NCBI RefSeq assembly: GCF_028207065.1
Contig: NZ_JAQLFP010000002.1
Span: forward strand, 1 to 64,000
Direction of reading: 5' to 3'
DNA: 64,000 bases
From: Collinsella aerofaciens
GTDB taxonomy: Bacteria > Actinomycetota > Coriobacteriia > Coriobacteriales > Coriobacteriaceae
Of this stretch, positions 7,815 through 49,217 are shown one piece after another. The notes below the pieces were generated by a model, which was not told the DNA's origin, searched no databases, and saw only the letters and a list, made by a program, of their open reading frames with translations. The position numbers and the translations under genes are program-made. Position 1 is the stretch's first letter, and each line of letters starts with the position of its first letter.

Positions 7815-8372
7815 ATGAAGAAGAAGCTGCTGCTTGCGCCCCTGATGGCTGTTCTGGTCGCGTGCGTGGTTGTGCTTTCCGGCTGCGGAGGTCCTTCGGT
7901 TGAGGAGCTCATCACCGAGGATCTTACGACGCAGTTTGACGAGGTCAAGAACGGCGGCGACGACTTCCTCGCCGGCCTGGAAGAGGCCTCGGGCGACGAG
8001 TTCGAGCAGCTGGGCATCGATCCCAAGGAGTACGCCAAGAGCTATCTCGAGGGTTTTGACTACAAGATCGGCGATGTGACGGTCGACGAGGACAAGGGCA
8101 CCGCGACTGCCGATGTCACCATTACCTGCAAGTCCATGAACAAGATCGTTGAAGATTTCGCCACCCAGTATCAGGAGAAGATCGCGGCGCTCGATACGAT
8201 GCCTTCCGAGGACGACCTGTACAAGATGGCCGGCCAGGTCATGGTCGACGTGACCAAGGCCGCTAAGACCAAGGACACCAAGGTTACCTTCAAGTACACC
8301 GCCAATGACGATGGCGAGTGGTCTGCTGACGATTCCGCAACCACCGAGATGATGAATGCGATGATGAGCTAG
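7815..8372 (+). CDS. Small secreted lipoprotein, DUF5105/DUF4878-like
   Basis: This 185-residue protein has a type II signal peptide: a lysine-rich N-terminus, a hydrophobic core and a lipobox VLSGC with the lipidated cysteine at residue 24. The mature part is acidic and helical, with TADVTITCKSMNKIVEDFATQYQEKI in the middle. It resembles the NTF2-like lipoproteins common in Gram-positive gut bacteria. It should be anchored on the outer face of the membrane. The start is ATG 7815 behind GGGAGGAA. It is a single gene; its function is unknown. Confidence 0.75.
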   Translation: MKKKLLLAPLMAVLVACVVVLSGCGGPSVEELITEDLTTQFDEVKNGGDDFLAGLEEASGDEFEQLGIDPKEYAKSYLEGFDYKIGDVTVDEDKGTATADVTITCKSMNKIVEDFATQYQEKIAALDTMPSEDDLYKMAGQVMVDVTKAAKTKDTKVTFKYTANDDGEWSADDSATTEMMNAMMS

Positions 8373-8391
8373 GGGAGTTACGCGGTAGTTC

Positions 8392-8576
8392 GTTACGGCG
8401 TTTTACCAAACGCCGTAACTGCCCGACGCTGCGCGGGCACCAGAGCGACAACTTGTCATTCAAAGAGGACGGCATGACCAGAAGGTCTATACCGTCCTCT
8501 TTTCATGCCAATTTGTTCGCACTGGTGCCCGCTCGCTGCCCGTCCTCTACCTGCGGCGTTGCCATGGTAGTCATTG
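8392..8576. repeat. Dispersed structured element, copy 1
   Basis: This follows the lipoprotein gene directly. Hairpin A has 12-pair arms at 8392-8403 and 8408-8419 around a TACC loop. A long outer stem pairs about 8433-8453 with about 8511-8532 and encloses hairpin B (8465-8499), whose tip has GACC-AGAA-GGTC. TTTT follows hairpin B. The second copy at 30047-30247 keeps the loops and changes paired bases together. See the finding. Confidence 0.8.
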
Positions 8577-8639
8577 AGGCGGCACTTGGGGACGTTCCTT
8601 TTCTGCCGGCAGTTGGGGACACTCCTTGTATCAACGCCG

Positions 8640-8832
8640 TATCAAATGCTCGGGAAAATGCGACCCGGTTTTTTGGCCGAATTCCGGGTCGCGGTTTCCG
8701 GATGGGGCGGGTTGCGGAAACCGCGACCCGGAATATTGCTCTGAAACGGGATACGGTTTCCCCGACGCGCCTCAAACGGAAAGTGCATCCCATTTCGGAG
8801 CTCCAAAACGGGATGCACTTTCCGCGTGGAAG
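8640..8832. repeat. Array of alternating GGAAA/TTTCC palindromes, locus 1
   Basis: Three forward-reverse pairs follow one another. Each forward arm is GGAAA, a variable centre, then CCC; each reverse arm is GGG, a variable centre, then TTTCC. The last pair (GGAAAGTGCATCCC with GGGATGCACTTTCC) is a perfect inverted repeat. The same family occurs at 25430-25490 and 48848-49073. Confidence 0.75.
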
Positions 8833-24235: not shown

Positions 24236-24780
24236 TGGACGCCCGCGAGCGTCGCCGTGCCATCATGGCCGTGCTCGAGGGGGCCAAAGATCCTGTCTCG
24301 GGCAGTGCGCTTGCCCGCGAGGTGGGCGTGAGCCGTCAGGTCGTGGTGCAGGACATCGCCCTGCTGCGCGCTGACGGGCACGATATCGTCGCCACCAATC
24401 GCGGCTATGTACTACAGGAGGCCCCCAGCAGCCCCGCCGTGCCCACGCGCTTGGTCAAGGTTCGCCACAGCGTTGAGCAGGCGGGCGATGAGCTCACGAG
24501 TATCGTCGACGCCGGCGGCGCCGTGCTCAACGTGATCGTCAATCACCGCGTGTACGGTAAGATCACGGCCGACCTGGACATTCGCAATCGTCGCGATGTT
24601 GAGCGCTACCTGCACGATATCGAGAGCGGCAAGAGCTTTCCACTATTAACGGTGACGAGCGGCTATCACTTCCATCGCATTGCGGCAGAGGATGAGCAAA
24701 CCCTCGACGAGATCGAGGCCATGCTCAAGGAGAAGGGCTACCTTGCCGATTTAATGCCTTACGAGGACGATCTATCGTAG
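24235..24780 (+). CDS. niaR: NiaR-type repressor (HTH + 3H domain)
   Basis: The 181-residue protein has an N-terminal winged helix (RRRAIMAVLEGAKDPVSGSALAREVGVSRQVVVQDIALLRADG). A C-terminal 3H domain has the histidines in VRHSVEQAGDEL, VNHRVYGKI and SGYHFHRI. NiaR proteins repress NAD synthesis or niacin uptake genes with nicotinic acid as co-repressor. As the last gene of the nad operon it likely binds the palindrome at 20828-20871, giving feedback on its own synthesis. It overlaps nadC by one base. Confidence 0.92.
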   Translation: MDARERRRAIMAVLEGAKDPVSGSALAREVGVSRQVVVQDIALLRADGHDIVATNRGYVLQEAPSSPAVPTRLVKVRHSVEQAGDELTSIVDAGGAVLNVIVNHRVYGKITADLDIRNRRDVERYLHDIESGKSFPLLTVTSGYHFHRIAAEDEQTLDEIEAMLKEKGYLADLMPYEDDLS

Positions 24781-24790
24781 CCGATGCTGC

Positions 24791-24888
24791 AAACGTCCCT
24801 AAGCGGCAATCTGACGTTCAATCGTCGGTCGCGTACCAAAGTACGCTTCCCTCCTCTTTCACGTCACCTTGCTCGCTTAGGGACGTTT
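24791..24888. repeat. Inverted repeat around GTCCCTAAGCG, after niaR
   Basis: AAACGTCCCTAAGCG (24791-24805) and its exact complement (24874-24888) flank a region holding a small perfect hairpin, GCGTAC-CAAA-GTACGC (24831-24846). It might end nad operon transcription. There is no T-run. Confidence 0.6.
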
Positions 24889-24934
24889 TCGCTGACGTGA
24901 GCTCAACCTGCGACGGTGCCTAATTGGTTATCCG

Positions 24935-24985
24935 CACAAAAAGGAGGCCTCCGCGGCGATGCGGAAGCCTCCTTTTTTGTGCACG
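24935..24985. terminator. Bidirectional intrinsic terminator, niaR/ferredoxin
   Basis: AAAAAGGAGGC and a matching GCCTCCTTTTTT with a GC-rich middle form a long stem, with A-run and T-run on either side. It serves the converging nad operon and ferredoxin gene. Confidence 0.85.
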
Positions 24986-29630: not shown

Positions 29631-30047
29631 ATGGCCGAGGACAATAGGAACAAACCGCTGTACATGATCAGCGTGGCGGCCGAGTTGACCGGCATGCATC
29701 CGCAGACTCTGCGCGTCTACGAGTCTAAGGGCCTGGTGAACCCCCAGCGCTCGGGCGGTAACACGCGCCTGTATTCGCGTGCCGATATCGAGCGTCTGGA
29801 GCTCATCAACCAGCTGACTGACGAGGGTATCAACCTTGCCGGCGTGGTGCGTATTCTCGATATGAAGGAGCGTGCCGAGGAGCGCGAGCGCGAGAACGAG
29901 AAGCTCCGCGCTCGCGTGCGCCAGCTCGAGGATGAGCTGCACGAGTACAAGATGCAGAAGAAGATCACCGCCCTGGCCCCGCGCGATGGCTCGGTTAACC
30001 CCGAGCAAGTCATGCGCAAGCTGCTAGGTACGGGTGGCGACTTATAG
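29631..30047 (+). CDS. hspR: Heat-shock repressor HspR (MerR family)
   Basis: The 138-residue MerR-type protein has the winged helix MISVAAELTGMHPQTLRVYESKGLVNPQRSGGNTRLYSRADIERL, followed by a coiled coil (KERAEERERENEKLRARVRQLEDELHEYK). In actinobacteria HspR with DnaK as co-repressor silences dnaK and clpB. Here it is the last gene of the dnaK operon and the same promoter block precedes clpB, which fits that scheme. It is 73 bases downstream of dnaJ. Confidence 0.93.
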   Translation: MAEDNRNKPLYMISVAAELTGMHPQTLRVYESKGLVNPQRSGGNTRLYSRADIERLELINQLTDEGINLAGVVRILDMKERAEERERENEKLRARVRQLEDELHEYKMQKKITALAPRDGSVNPEQVMRKLLGTGGDL

Positions 30048-30247
30048 TTACGCGGTTTTACCAAACCGCGTAACGGGCCGACGCTGCGCGCCGCCCAGAG
30101 CGACAATTTGTCATTCAAAGGGCAAGGCATGACCAGAAGGTCTATGCCTTGCCCTTTTCATGCCAACTTGTTCGCTCTGGACGTCGCTCGCTGTCCGTCC
30201 TCTACCTGCGGCGCTGCCTTGCTCCGGATGCGGTAGGGTAGTCATTG
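30047..30247. repeat. Dispersed structured element, copy 2
   Basis: It begins in the hspR stop codon. Hairpin A arms are 30047-30058 and 30063-30074 (loop TACC). Hairpin B is 30120-30154, again with GACC-AGAA-GGTC at its tip and TTTT after it. The outer stem pairs about 30090-30110 with about 30164-30185. Paired bases differ jointly from copy 1 at 8392. After about 30250, up to the hydratase start at 30441, I see only ordinary leader sequence. Confidence 0.8.
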
Positions 30248-30440
30248 GGGACGTTCTTAAATGACTAGTCGAAAGGGACGCTCTTGCACAAAATCTTCCG
30301 GCCTTCGACCGGCACGTCCTTTACTTTACCTAGATAAAGTGAACGCGCAGATTCGTAGCCCACTCGCAACTGTTCTATGGCACGATATTGAACGAATGTA
30401 TGCTATGCGCCCAAATTGTTTGGGCAGAGTGGGAGACAGT

Positions 30441-49141: not shown

Positions 49142-49217
49142 GCCTCCGTAGCTCAGGGGATAGAGCACCGCTCTCCTAAAGCGGGTGTCGACGGTTCGAA
49201 TCCGCCCGGGGGCACCA
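49142..49217 (+). tRNA. tRNA-Arg, anticodon CCT
   Basis: A full cloverleaf: acceptor GCCTCCG pairs with CGGGGGC (one G-T), D-arm AGCTCAGGGGATAGAGC, anticodon stem CCGCT/AGCGG with loop CTCCTAA giving CCT, T-loop TTCGAAT, and encoded CCA. It reads AGG codons. Its 3' half is the attachment site of the element that follows. Confidence 0.95.

What the first reader, a model, noticed from the sequence alone, without database searches (positions are those of the whole stretch)
8392..8576. Dispersed folded element with compensating base changes (also 30047-30247)
Two copies 21.6 kb apart, each just after a gene. In hairpin A the arms are GTTACGGCGTTT in one and GTTACGCGGTTT in the other, each with its exact complement. 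In hairpin B, GAGGACGG/CCGTCCTC becomes GGGCAAGGC/GCCTTGCCC, while the tip GACC-AGAA-GGTC and the loop TACC do not change. This pattern means the fold, not the sequence, is kept: a structured RNA or a protein-recognised DNA cruciform.
Basis: seen in the sequence. Interest (0 to 1): 0.75.

Follow-up and report, generated by a model that had tools for sequence, protein, structure and literature searches.

The report
Gene-end DNA hairpins of gut Coriobacteria
A roughly 150-letter hairpin-forming DNA repeat sits right after the stop codons of dozens of genes in many gut Coriobacteria; its paired arms keep changing together, and the evidence points to a folded, strand-specific DNA element that spreads and is swapped in place rather than to an ordinary structured RNA.

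Summary
The two window copies and a third (24781-24894) belong to a dispersed family matched in 49 of 120 sampled Coriobacteriales genomes, with about 25-50 copies in Collinsella aerofaciens relatives and Gordonibacter-type genomes; no Rfam match. Anatomy: stop codon, 12-bp hairpin A, box CGACGCTGC, ~100-nt imperfect hairpin, box TCGCTG. Covariation is massive (34 of 49 and 46 of 49 pairs change on both sides). But G.U is no commoner than A.C (99:96; 106:250), unlike RNase P RNA of the same order (276:7), so a transcribed fold is probably not what is kept. The DNA has strand polarity: internal mismatches are purine-purine on the antisense strand (242 vs 2; 398 vs 6), and copies follow the leading strand (33 of 34 in G087, against 59% of comparable genes), though only weakly in Collinsella. 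Sites are conserved within a clade, yet at 12 of 19 shared sites the copy matches a paralogue better. Best reading: a REP/YPAL-like, attC-reminiscent miniature single-strand DNA hairpin element, exchanged in place. Y1/RAYT transposases are absent from seven copy-bearing genomes; the enzyme is unknown.

The parts
8370..8372 (+). stop codon (TAG) of the upstream gene of copy 1 (about 185 aa; weak DUF5105 match, below its cut-off)
8377..8385 (+). truncated extra hairpin-A arm (GTTACGCGG) in front of copy 1; truncated or doubled A hairpins also occur in G012, G083, L008, L022, L055
8392..8419 (+). copy 1 hairpin A (12 bp, loop TACC)
8420..8432 (+). copy 1 linker with the conserved box CGACGCTGC
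8533..8538 (+). copy 1 conserved 3' box TCGCTG
8539..8558 (+). copy 1 tail (CCCGTCCTCTACCTGCGGCG), semi-conserved
24781..24790 (+). copy 3 linker box (CCGATGCTGC) directly after stop TAG 24778-24780 of a 3H-domain regulator gene; hairpin A missing
24791..24888 (+). copy 3 long imperfect hairpin (other subtype); DNA MFE (24791-24889) -30.5 sense, -32.5 antisense
24889..24894 (+). copy 3 3' box TCGCTG
24938..24978 (+). ordinary intrinsic-terminator-like hairpin plus T6 downstream of copy 3: here the element lies between stop codon and terminator
30047..30074 (+). copy 2 hairpin A; its first G is the last base of stop codon TAG 30045-30047 of the hspR gene (NCBIfam HspR, above cut-off)
30075..30087 (+). 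copy 2 linker with CGACGCTGC
30088..30187 (+). copy 2 long imperfect hairpin; DNA MFE -37.2 sense, -45.3 antisense
30188..30193 (+). copy 2 3' box TCGCTG
30194..30213 (+). copy 2 tail (TCCGTCCTCTACCTGCGGCG)

Best explanation
A dispersed, non-coding, miniature mobile (or exchangeable) DNA element of Coriobacteriales whose working form is an imperfect single-strand DNA hairpin of the antisense strand. SHOWN: one conserved anatomy in two bacterial families; paired arms that change together; no RNA-type preference for G.U over A.C; mismatches that are purine-purine on the antisense strand; fixed orientation relative to the upstream stop codon and, in three Eggerthellaceae genomes, to replication; presence of two sites in one clade and their absence in outgroups, with one subtype standing where another stands in a relative. 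INFERRED: a protein recognises the antisense-strand hairpin with its regularly placed G.A/G.G mismatches, cuts or joins near the hairpin bases (the CGCTG boxes flank the long hairpin), and so brings elements to gene ends and swaps them in place. Copies survive where they do little harm, just behind the stop codon, oriented so that the better-folding strand is on the leading-strand template, as reported for integron attC sites. The long paired arms are kept by selection for a foldable substrate (and perhaps by hairpin-templated correction), not by selection on an RNA. Effects on mRNA 3' ends would then be by-products or later uses. The enzyme is unknown; Y1/RAYT transposases are not required.
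For: Family: a CM built from 40 copies matches 49 of 120 genomes of the order, 22 of 66 genera. Covariation. DNA rather than RNA: G.U:A.C cells 99:96 (110 distinct Collinsella copies) and 106:250 (90 Eggerthellaceae matches) vs 276:7 for RNase P RNA from 30 genomes of the order; distinct contexts 60:62, 71:119, 63:4; RNase P held-out halves 1374:44 over ten splits. Strand: internal-loop mismatches of the antisense fold purine-purine 242 vs pyrimidine-pyrimidine 2, and 398 vs 6; the sense fold gives the mirror image (pyrimidine-pyrimidine 204 vs 3, 232 vs 8), and without any folding three opposed column pairs of A2 are pyrimidine-pyrimidine in 40 of 40 copies; the sense strand is the better folder in only 3 of 135. 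Replication: 33 of 34 listed copies leading in G087 and 21 of 23 in G104 by GC-skew arcs vs 116 of 196 and 87 of 160 genes with a 3' gap of 60+ (Fisher 3e-6, 5e-4); G080 26 of 28 by best two-arc split (0 of 2000 shuffles as good). Position: 106 of 142 copies have a stop codon -15..+12 nt from hairpin A, against 13 of 142 at the other end. Turnover: 12 of 19 shared sites nearer a paralogue. Gain: hspR site filled in 14 of 17 clade members (3 remnants), none of 13 outgroups; pyrE site 16 of 17 (1 remnant), none of 8 outgroups.
Against: No mobilising enzyme or autonomous copy was found. No target duplication or fresh single insertion was demonstrated; the outgroup sites are too diverged to show junctions. 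Tight adjacency to stop codons in sense orientation is more naturally explained by a transcript-level role than by DNA transposition alone. Replication bias in Collinsella is weak (G024 23 of 28, 121 of 2000 shuffles as good; G121 13 of 15, 273 of 2000), and two G087 copies lie close to the arc borders I chose. The better folding of the antisense strand follows from the mismatch letters and is not independent of them. In-place replacement could partly be ordinary homologous recombination: one copy (G007 L096) is a chimera of two subtypes joined at the tip. The G.U:A.C test assumes that an RNA under selection would behave like RNase P; the control's pairs were chosen by a program that admits G.U, and in pairs at least 85% Watson-Crick the counts are 53:57, 48:76 and only 16:2 for RNase P. 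The Eggerthellaceae alignment was fitted to the model and holds a few fragments.
Confidence: 0.57

Rival explanations
1. A 3'-UTR RNA element: the hairpins are made in the upstream gene's mRNA and act there (mRNA stability, RNase III or protein binding, termination-coupled folding at the stop codon), as discussed for YPAL and ERIC; copies spread by recombination.
For: Sense orientation and adjacency to stop codons (106 of 142 within -15..+12 nt; annotated gene ends agree); copy 3 lies between stop codon and an intrinsic terminator, hence is probably transcribed; very strong covariation.
Against: G.U no commoner than A.C, opposite to RNase P; the sense strand is the better folder in only 3 of 135; a replication-strand bias beyond that of genes is not predicted.
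Confidence: 0.2
2. A host-used polar DNA landmark (in the manner of KOPS, Chi or Ter sites, recalled): a chromosomal protein reads these hairpins in the direction of replication; they are not mobile in themselves.
For: Leading-strand orientation in 33 of 34, 21 of 23 and 26 of 28 listed copies; positions largely shared between close relatives (19 shared sites of 27 and 25 with an assigned gene); among annotated collections seen only in one chromosome-sized record, in no phage record.
Against: Subtype replacement at fixed sites, single or no matches in several Collinsella species, and long variable arms are not needed for a double-stranded landmark.
Confidence: 0.12
3. A REP family mobilised by a RAYT (Y1 HUH) transposase.
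For: REPs share gene-end position and alternative complementary stem residues (PMC3733652, sections read; passages); 22 of 24 genomes of the genus have a Y1_Tnp match.
Against: No GTAG tag at the hairpins in the 40-copy alignment; no significant model match in 20 loci around Y1_Tnp matches (best E 0.11); no Y1_Tnp match in G080, G087, G104, G097, G101, G073, G043, which have 13 to 50 copies' worth of model matches, while Collinsella with no or one match (G013, G015, G020) have it.
Confidence: 0.04
4. Intrinsic transcription terminators that look alike.
For: Gene-end position; some subtypes have T4-T5 after the tip stem.
Against: A strict scan of my own finds 0 of 142 elements with an internal hairpin plus T-run; hairpin A has no T tract behind it; copy 3 is followed by its own canonical terminator. 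The scan is strict: it also finds a terminator within 250 nt downstream in only 7 of 142.
Confidence: 0.07

Closest known systems
REP / REPIN / BIME elements (GTAG and CGTC super-families)
   Same: Dispersed palindromes, in the families diagrammed close (<20 bp) to the 3' end of ORFs, GTAG REPs often supplying the TAG stop, sub-families with alternative complementary stem residues; CGTC REPs seem to lack a dedicated transposase (PMC3733652: sections 6 and 15 and passages read).
   Different: A two-hairpin unit of about 150 nt with fixed CGACGCTGC and TCGCTG boxes instead of a GTAG/CGTC-tagged 20-40 bp palindrome; one polarity to the gene and (Eggerthellaceae) to replication; strand-specific purine mismatches.
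YPAL / RU-2 and ERIC of Yersinia and enterobacteria
   Same: Size (127-168 bp), hairpin-forming, intergenic, empty and filled sites (PMC2229807, passages read). That YPAL prefers the vicinity of stop codons is recalled.
   Different: No sequence relation was tested; YPAL has 3-26 bp target duplications, not shown here; exchange of subtypes at fixed sites is not mentioned in the passages I read.
Integron attC sites
   Same: Imperfect hairpins kept in structure rather than sequence (start of abstract of PMC2727003 in a listing), one strand favoured, that strand preferentially on the leading-strand template in chromosomal integrons (PMC11023631, passages read); position at the 3' end of cassette genes is recalled.
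   Different: No R-box pair RYYYAAC/GTTRRRY at the hairpin base (consensus recalled), no cassette array, dispersed along the chromosome; integrase not searched for.
Candidate structured RNAs of human microbiomes
   Same: A 2021 screen lists 3161 candidates, 250 of them palindromic, and mentions one in Collinsella (PMC8040213, passages read).
   Different: The Collinsella example named there is a 51-bp motif upstream of L7/L12; whether this element is among the rest could not be checked (supplements not available). No Rfam family matches.

Membership tests
Structured RNA family | Covarying helices beyond chance | tested here: met
   34/49 and 46/49 pairs with double-sided changes; 0 of 500 shuffles as high; slid controls far lower
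Structured RNA family | Wobble (G.U) tolerated more than A.C on the transcribed strand | tested here: not met
   99:96 and 106:250 vs RNase P 276:7
Structured RNA family | Match to a curated family (Rfam 15) | tested here: not met
   the window's 1 gathering-score match is a tRNA at 49142-49214; 0 matches in 20 Eggerthellaceae loci; at E<=10 round copy 1 only weak hits far below gathering scores
Structured RNA family | Expressed transcript | not testable with these tools
   no RNA-seq available
GTAG REP / REPIN | GTAG tag beside the stem | tested here: not met
   40-copy alignment shows no GTAG; fixed boxes are GACGCTGC and TCGCTG
GTAG REP / REPIN | Associated RAYT (Y1_Tnp) gene | tested here: not met
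   no significant match in 20 Y1_Tnp loci; 7 copy-bearing genomes without PF01797, 18 of the 29 searched there have it
CGTC REP | CGTC tag adjoining an 8-9 bp stem with A-T in its first two pairs | tested here: not met
   hairpin A has 12 bp beginning G-C; CGTC occurs only in the antisense linker (GCAGCGTCGAG), some nt away from the stem
MITE (incl. YPAL/ERIC type) | Target-site duplication at filled sites | tested here: inconclusive
   filled, remnant and empty hspR and pyrE sites seen but the empty ones are too diverged to place junctions
MITE (incl. YPAL/ERIC type) | Multiple dispersed copies with presence/absence between relatives | tested here: met
attC site | R boxes RYYYAAC ... GTTRRRY at the hairpin base | tested here: not met
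   hairpin bases read GTTACG...CGTAAC and GCG...CGC; consensus recalled
attC site | Bottom strand folds better than top strand | tested here: met
   sense strand better in only 3 of 135 whole elements; long hairpin antisense better in 50 of 51 and 84 of 84
attC site | Integron integrase in the genome | not tested
Intrinsic terminator | GC-rich hairpin followed by T run | tested here: not met
   0 of 142 inside the element by a strict scan

The most novel reading that the evidence does not exclude
A new, order-wide recombination system of Coriobacteriales: dozens of attC-like, strand-specific single-strand DNA hairpins anchored to gene ends across the whole chromosome, between which an unidentified (non-Y1) recombinase exchanges hairpin cassettes in place, with orientation policed by replication.
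Probability: 0.2. Interest if true: 0.85.

Novelty: new variant of a known kind. Interest (0 to 1): 0.62.

Why it matters
It is an abundant, fast-changing element of common human gut bacteria for which five searches of the held open-access library found no description. It suggests that strong RNA-style covariation can come from folded DNA: the G.U versus A.C count and the strand of the purine mismatches separate the two and could be applied to other 'structured RNA' candidates. The combination of gene-end anchoring, replication-strand polarity and in-place exchange without a RAYT makes the question of how REP-like palindromes move testable in culturable organisms such as Gordonibacter and Collinsella.

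Tried and rejected
Rfam at gathering score, and at E<=10 round copy 1: nothing relevant. Phage collection: no match; plasmid collection: one chromosome-sized Collinsella record with 11 places. RAYT/IS200 as mobiliser: rejected. Intrinsic terminator: rejected by a strict scan. A TA-target model was considered from the letters before hairpin A (TA before the element in several Collinsella copies, not in most Eggerthellaceae copies seen) and dropped without a formal test. attC membership: rejected on the R boxes; kept as a 'works like' comparison. IS110-type elements were considered as movers, but they look like users of the element as a target. Literature: five searches aimed at such repeats in Collinsella, Eggerthella or Gordonibacter found no description (open-access library only); the RepRanger paper does not name these genera in its main text (word search).

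Rows dropped before counts: one search used 142 elements = 56 of 103 matches of G007 and G024 (those of 80 bits or more; the rest are echoes on the other strand, fragments or divergent members) plus 86 of 90 matches (50 bits or more; these include three met by chance in fetched G104 stretches). For strand, G087, G104 and G080 copies are the 34, 23 and 28 listed of 50, 35 and 42 found; G121's are 15 listed of 25 found. Folding used the 135 of 142 with 138-150 nt. RNase P used 30 of 34 genomes. One search shows two sites (L093, L009) against the wrong one of two copies in L126, on which the count rests, pairs them correctly. The Fisher value printed used the wrong genome's background; one search has the right ones.

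Full report
WHAT WAS CHECKED. Each folds far better than dinucleotide shuffles (z -8.45 and -7.54; 0 of 200 as good). Stem B is not a separate hairpin but the tip of one imperfect hairpin of about 100 nt. The full unit is: hairpin A (12 bp, 3-4 nt loop), linker ending in the box CGACGCTGC, long hairpin, box TCGCTG, then a semi-conserved tail. A third copy, lacking hairpin A, lies at 24781-24894 directly behind a stop codon and in front of an ordinary intrinsic terminator.

HOW FAR IT GOES. The window's own assembly is not held. BLASTN with copy 1 matched 17 of 39 relatives, all in one genus, 13 of them with 21-26 places and 4 with 1-3 (some places are echoes of the palindrome on the other strand). 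A named record with copies is Collinsella aerofaciens NZ_OY725717.1. A covariance model from 40 copies (alignment A2, model R1) then matched, at E<=1e-4, 49 of 120 genomes drawn from the order, in 22 of 66 genera (at most 26 candidates scored per genome, so counts are lower bounds): 20 genomes of the window's genus (5 of them with a single weak match; none of the genus appears among the non-matching genomes listed, 51 of which are not shown), 4 of 6 listed from other genera of its family, and many of one other family (Eggerthellaceae by the titles below). Fuller searches gave 28 matches of 78 bits or more in G024 and 29 of 83 bits or more in G007, and 50, 42 and 35 matches in G087, G080 and G104. 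G087's contig has the length of LT827128.1 (Gordonibacter sp. Marseille-P2775), and a 20-letter pattern led to copies in records titled Gordonibacter, Eggerthella, Paraeggerthella, Enteroscipio, Rubneribacter, Adlercreutzia, Slackia and Collinsella. There is no Rfam match.

COVARIATION. On the sequence-only alignment of 40 copies 96.9% of cells pair (80.4% when shuffled) and 34 of 49 pairs change on both sides; on 90 Eggerthellaceae matches 90.2% pair (67.0%) and 46 of 49 change on both sides; no shuffle of 500 reaches any measure, and sliding the partner by 1-3 columns destroys the signal. The second alignment was fitted to the model and so leans towards it. Several pairs flip C-G to G-C with no intermediate (31:9 and 22:18 in hairpin A).

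RNA OR DNA. If a transcribed fold is under selection, G.U should be tolerated and A.C (the same mutation seen on the other strand) should not. In 110 distinct Collinsella copies there are 99 G.U and 96 A.C cells, in 90 Eggerthellaceae matches 106 and 250; RNase P RNA from 30 genomes of the same order, aligned and folded in the same way, gives 276 and 7. In pairs that are at least 85% Watson-Crick the counts are 53:57, 48:76 and 16:2, so there the control is small. As distinct contexts the figures are 60:62, 71:119 and 63:4; RNase P with the structure taken from one half and counted on the other gives 1374:44 over ten splits. Hairpin A alone gives 1:1 and 19:10 in distinct arm pairs, too few to weigh and, in Eggerthellaceae, leaning the RNA way. 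So selection on a sense RNA fold of the whole element is not seen; an antisense RNA is not favoured either (119:71 against 63:4). This argues for a DNA-level fold.

STRAND POLARITY. The long hairpin has internal mismatches at regular places. In the antisense fold they are purine-purine in 242 cases and pyrimidine-pyrimidine in 2 (Collinsella, 5 mixed), 398 and 6 (Eggerthellaceae, 35 mixed), mostly G.A, G.G and tandem GA/GA. The result does not depend on which strand is folded: the sense fold shows pyrimidine-pyrimidine 204 vs 3 (35 mixed) and 232 vs 8 (141 mixed), and in the unfolded alignment A2 the opposed columns 62/123, 70/115 and 71/114 are pyrimidine-pyrimidine in 40 of 40 copies. With DNA parameters the sense strand of the element is the better folder in only 3 of 135 copies (mean difference 7.5 kcal/mol), nearly all of it from the long hairpin; this follows from the mismatch letters and is not independent evidence. 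Random 147-mers differ by -0.59 (sd 3.23).

REPLICATION. In three single-contig Eggerthellaceae genomes the strands of the listed copies fall into two arcs. GC skew changes sign at about the same places in G087 and G104. 33 of 34 copies (G087) and 21 of 23 (G104) lie with their sense strand leading; genes with a 3' gap of at least 60 nt do so in 116 of 196 and 87 of 160 (crude gene calls by codon-position GC in 400 kb of each genome). Two G087 copies lie near the arc borders that I chose. G080 fits two arcs with 2 exceptions of 28 (0 of 2000 shuffles; no independent skew survey). In Collinsella the tendency is weak: G024 5 exceptions of 28 (121 of 2000 shuffles as good), G121 2 of 15 (273 of 2000). 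The better-folding strand is thus usually the leading-strand template in Eggerthellaceae, which is the arrangement reported for attC bottom strands in chromosomal integrons (PMC11023631, passages read).

POSITION. Of 142 copies in five genomes 106 have the stop codon of an open frame of 80 or more codons -15 to +12 nt from the start of hairpin A, 85 of them -2 to +5; 14 have none in the range searched. At the other end of the same copies a facing frame's stop lies in that range in 13 of 142. Where annotation was looked at, the genes are ordinary: lysS, tyrS, queA, lacB, DAHP synthase and others; the gene of copy 2 is hspR and that of L088 pyrE by NCBIfam. Twelve Eggerthellaceae copies, at exactly -15, have the stop codon in the loop of hairpin A, so the arm would encode the last amino acids.

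TURNOVER. Between G007 and G024, 19 gene ends carry a copy in both (of 27 and 25 with an assigned gene). The genes' last 290 bases are 88-100% identical, yet in 12 of 19 the G007 copy is closer to a copy elsewhere in G024 than to its orthologue: in 10 of these 0.87-0.99 against 0.73-0.79, in two by a small margin (taking the best of some two dozen paralogues favours the paralogue somewhat). In the other 7 the orthologue is as close or closer. At the hspR gene of copy 2, 14 of 17 genomes of the aerofaciens clade have a copy, 3 a remnant, and 13 other Collinsella nothing; at pyrE 16 of 17, one remnant, and 8 others nothing (one and one searched genomes gave no locus to read). The filled sites show varying arms, doubled or truncated hairpin A, and pieces that look like older copies behind the new one. 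One copy (L096) joins the 5' arm of one subtype to the 3' arm of another at the conserved tip, so homologous recombination also acts.

WHAT MOVES IT. The model finds nothing significant in 20 loci round Y1_Tnp matches (best E 0.11), and seven copy-bearing genomes have no Y1_Tnp match while some with no or one copy do. I met no autonomous relative, but made no systematic search for one.

CONCLUSION. The tests made here favour folded DNA over RNA. In habit it is closest to REPs and YPAL: gene ends, alternative complementary stems, sometimes supplying the stop codon (PMC3733652, sections 6 and 15 read; PMC2229807, passages). In strand choice and orientation it recalls attC. It does not meet the definition of any of them as far as tested, so I call it a new variant of the known kind 'dispersed palindromic mobile element', mechanism partly inferred. 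The main unexplained point is why the start lies within a few bases of the stop codon; a DNA mechanism alone does not predict it, and I keep the 3'-UTR RNA rival at 0.2.

Noticed in passing
L093, L126, L155, L467, L036, L437, L291 (junctions); L312:16616-17428: A foreign sequence begins at exactly the same spot of the element, TCGCT|CATATGACCC, at 7 of 8 distinct junctions found in the fetched loci (L437 is at the end of a remnant); the eighth (L468) is at the end of a terminator-like hairpin. In G007 it leads to an IS110/IS116-family transposase frame (Pfam Transposase_20), so an insertion sequence seems to use the element as a target.
   Followed up: partly
window 8565-8625, 30236-30262; many fetched loci: A second dispersed repeat, (G)TAGTCATTGGGGACGTTC... 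/ CACTTGGGGACGTTCC..., follows many copies; it has a GTAG-like start and may be a true REP family of Collinsella. Another insertion-sequence-like end (TGTTCCTATAGTTTTGTCAACC) interrupts it in L081 and L096.
   Followed up: no
G024:C1:250515-250614, 1333792-1333890, 1660957-1661054, 1662257-1662356 and similar in G007: Divergent members consist of the long hairpin alone (98-100 nt, no hairpin A, quite different outer arms) with a similar inner core; several also follow stop codons.
   Followed up: partly
G012 (L448) and G024 (L132): A hairpin A cut at the same place (ACCAACCC or ACCAAACC) is followed by TATCG/TATTG and a second complete element, as if a new copy had been placed into an old one.
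   Followed up: no
window 8640-8830: Other long inverted repeats (GACCCGG..., GGGATGCACTTTCC...) downstream of copy 1, seen by eye; the intergenic region is a mosaic of repeats.
   Followed up: no
G007 contig C6 = NZ_OY725717.1: The record is titled 'plasmid 6' but is 900 kb and carries lysS, tyrS, ribosomal protein genes and the RNA polymerase alpha subunit gene, so it looks like part of the chromosome.
   Followed up: no
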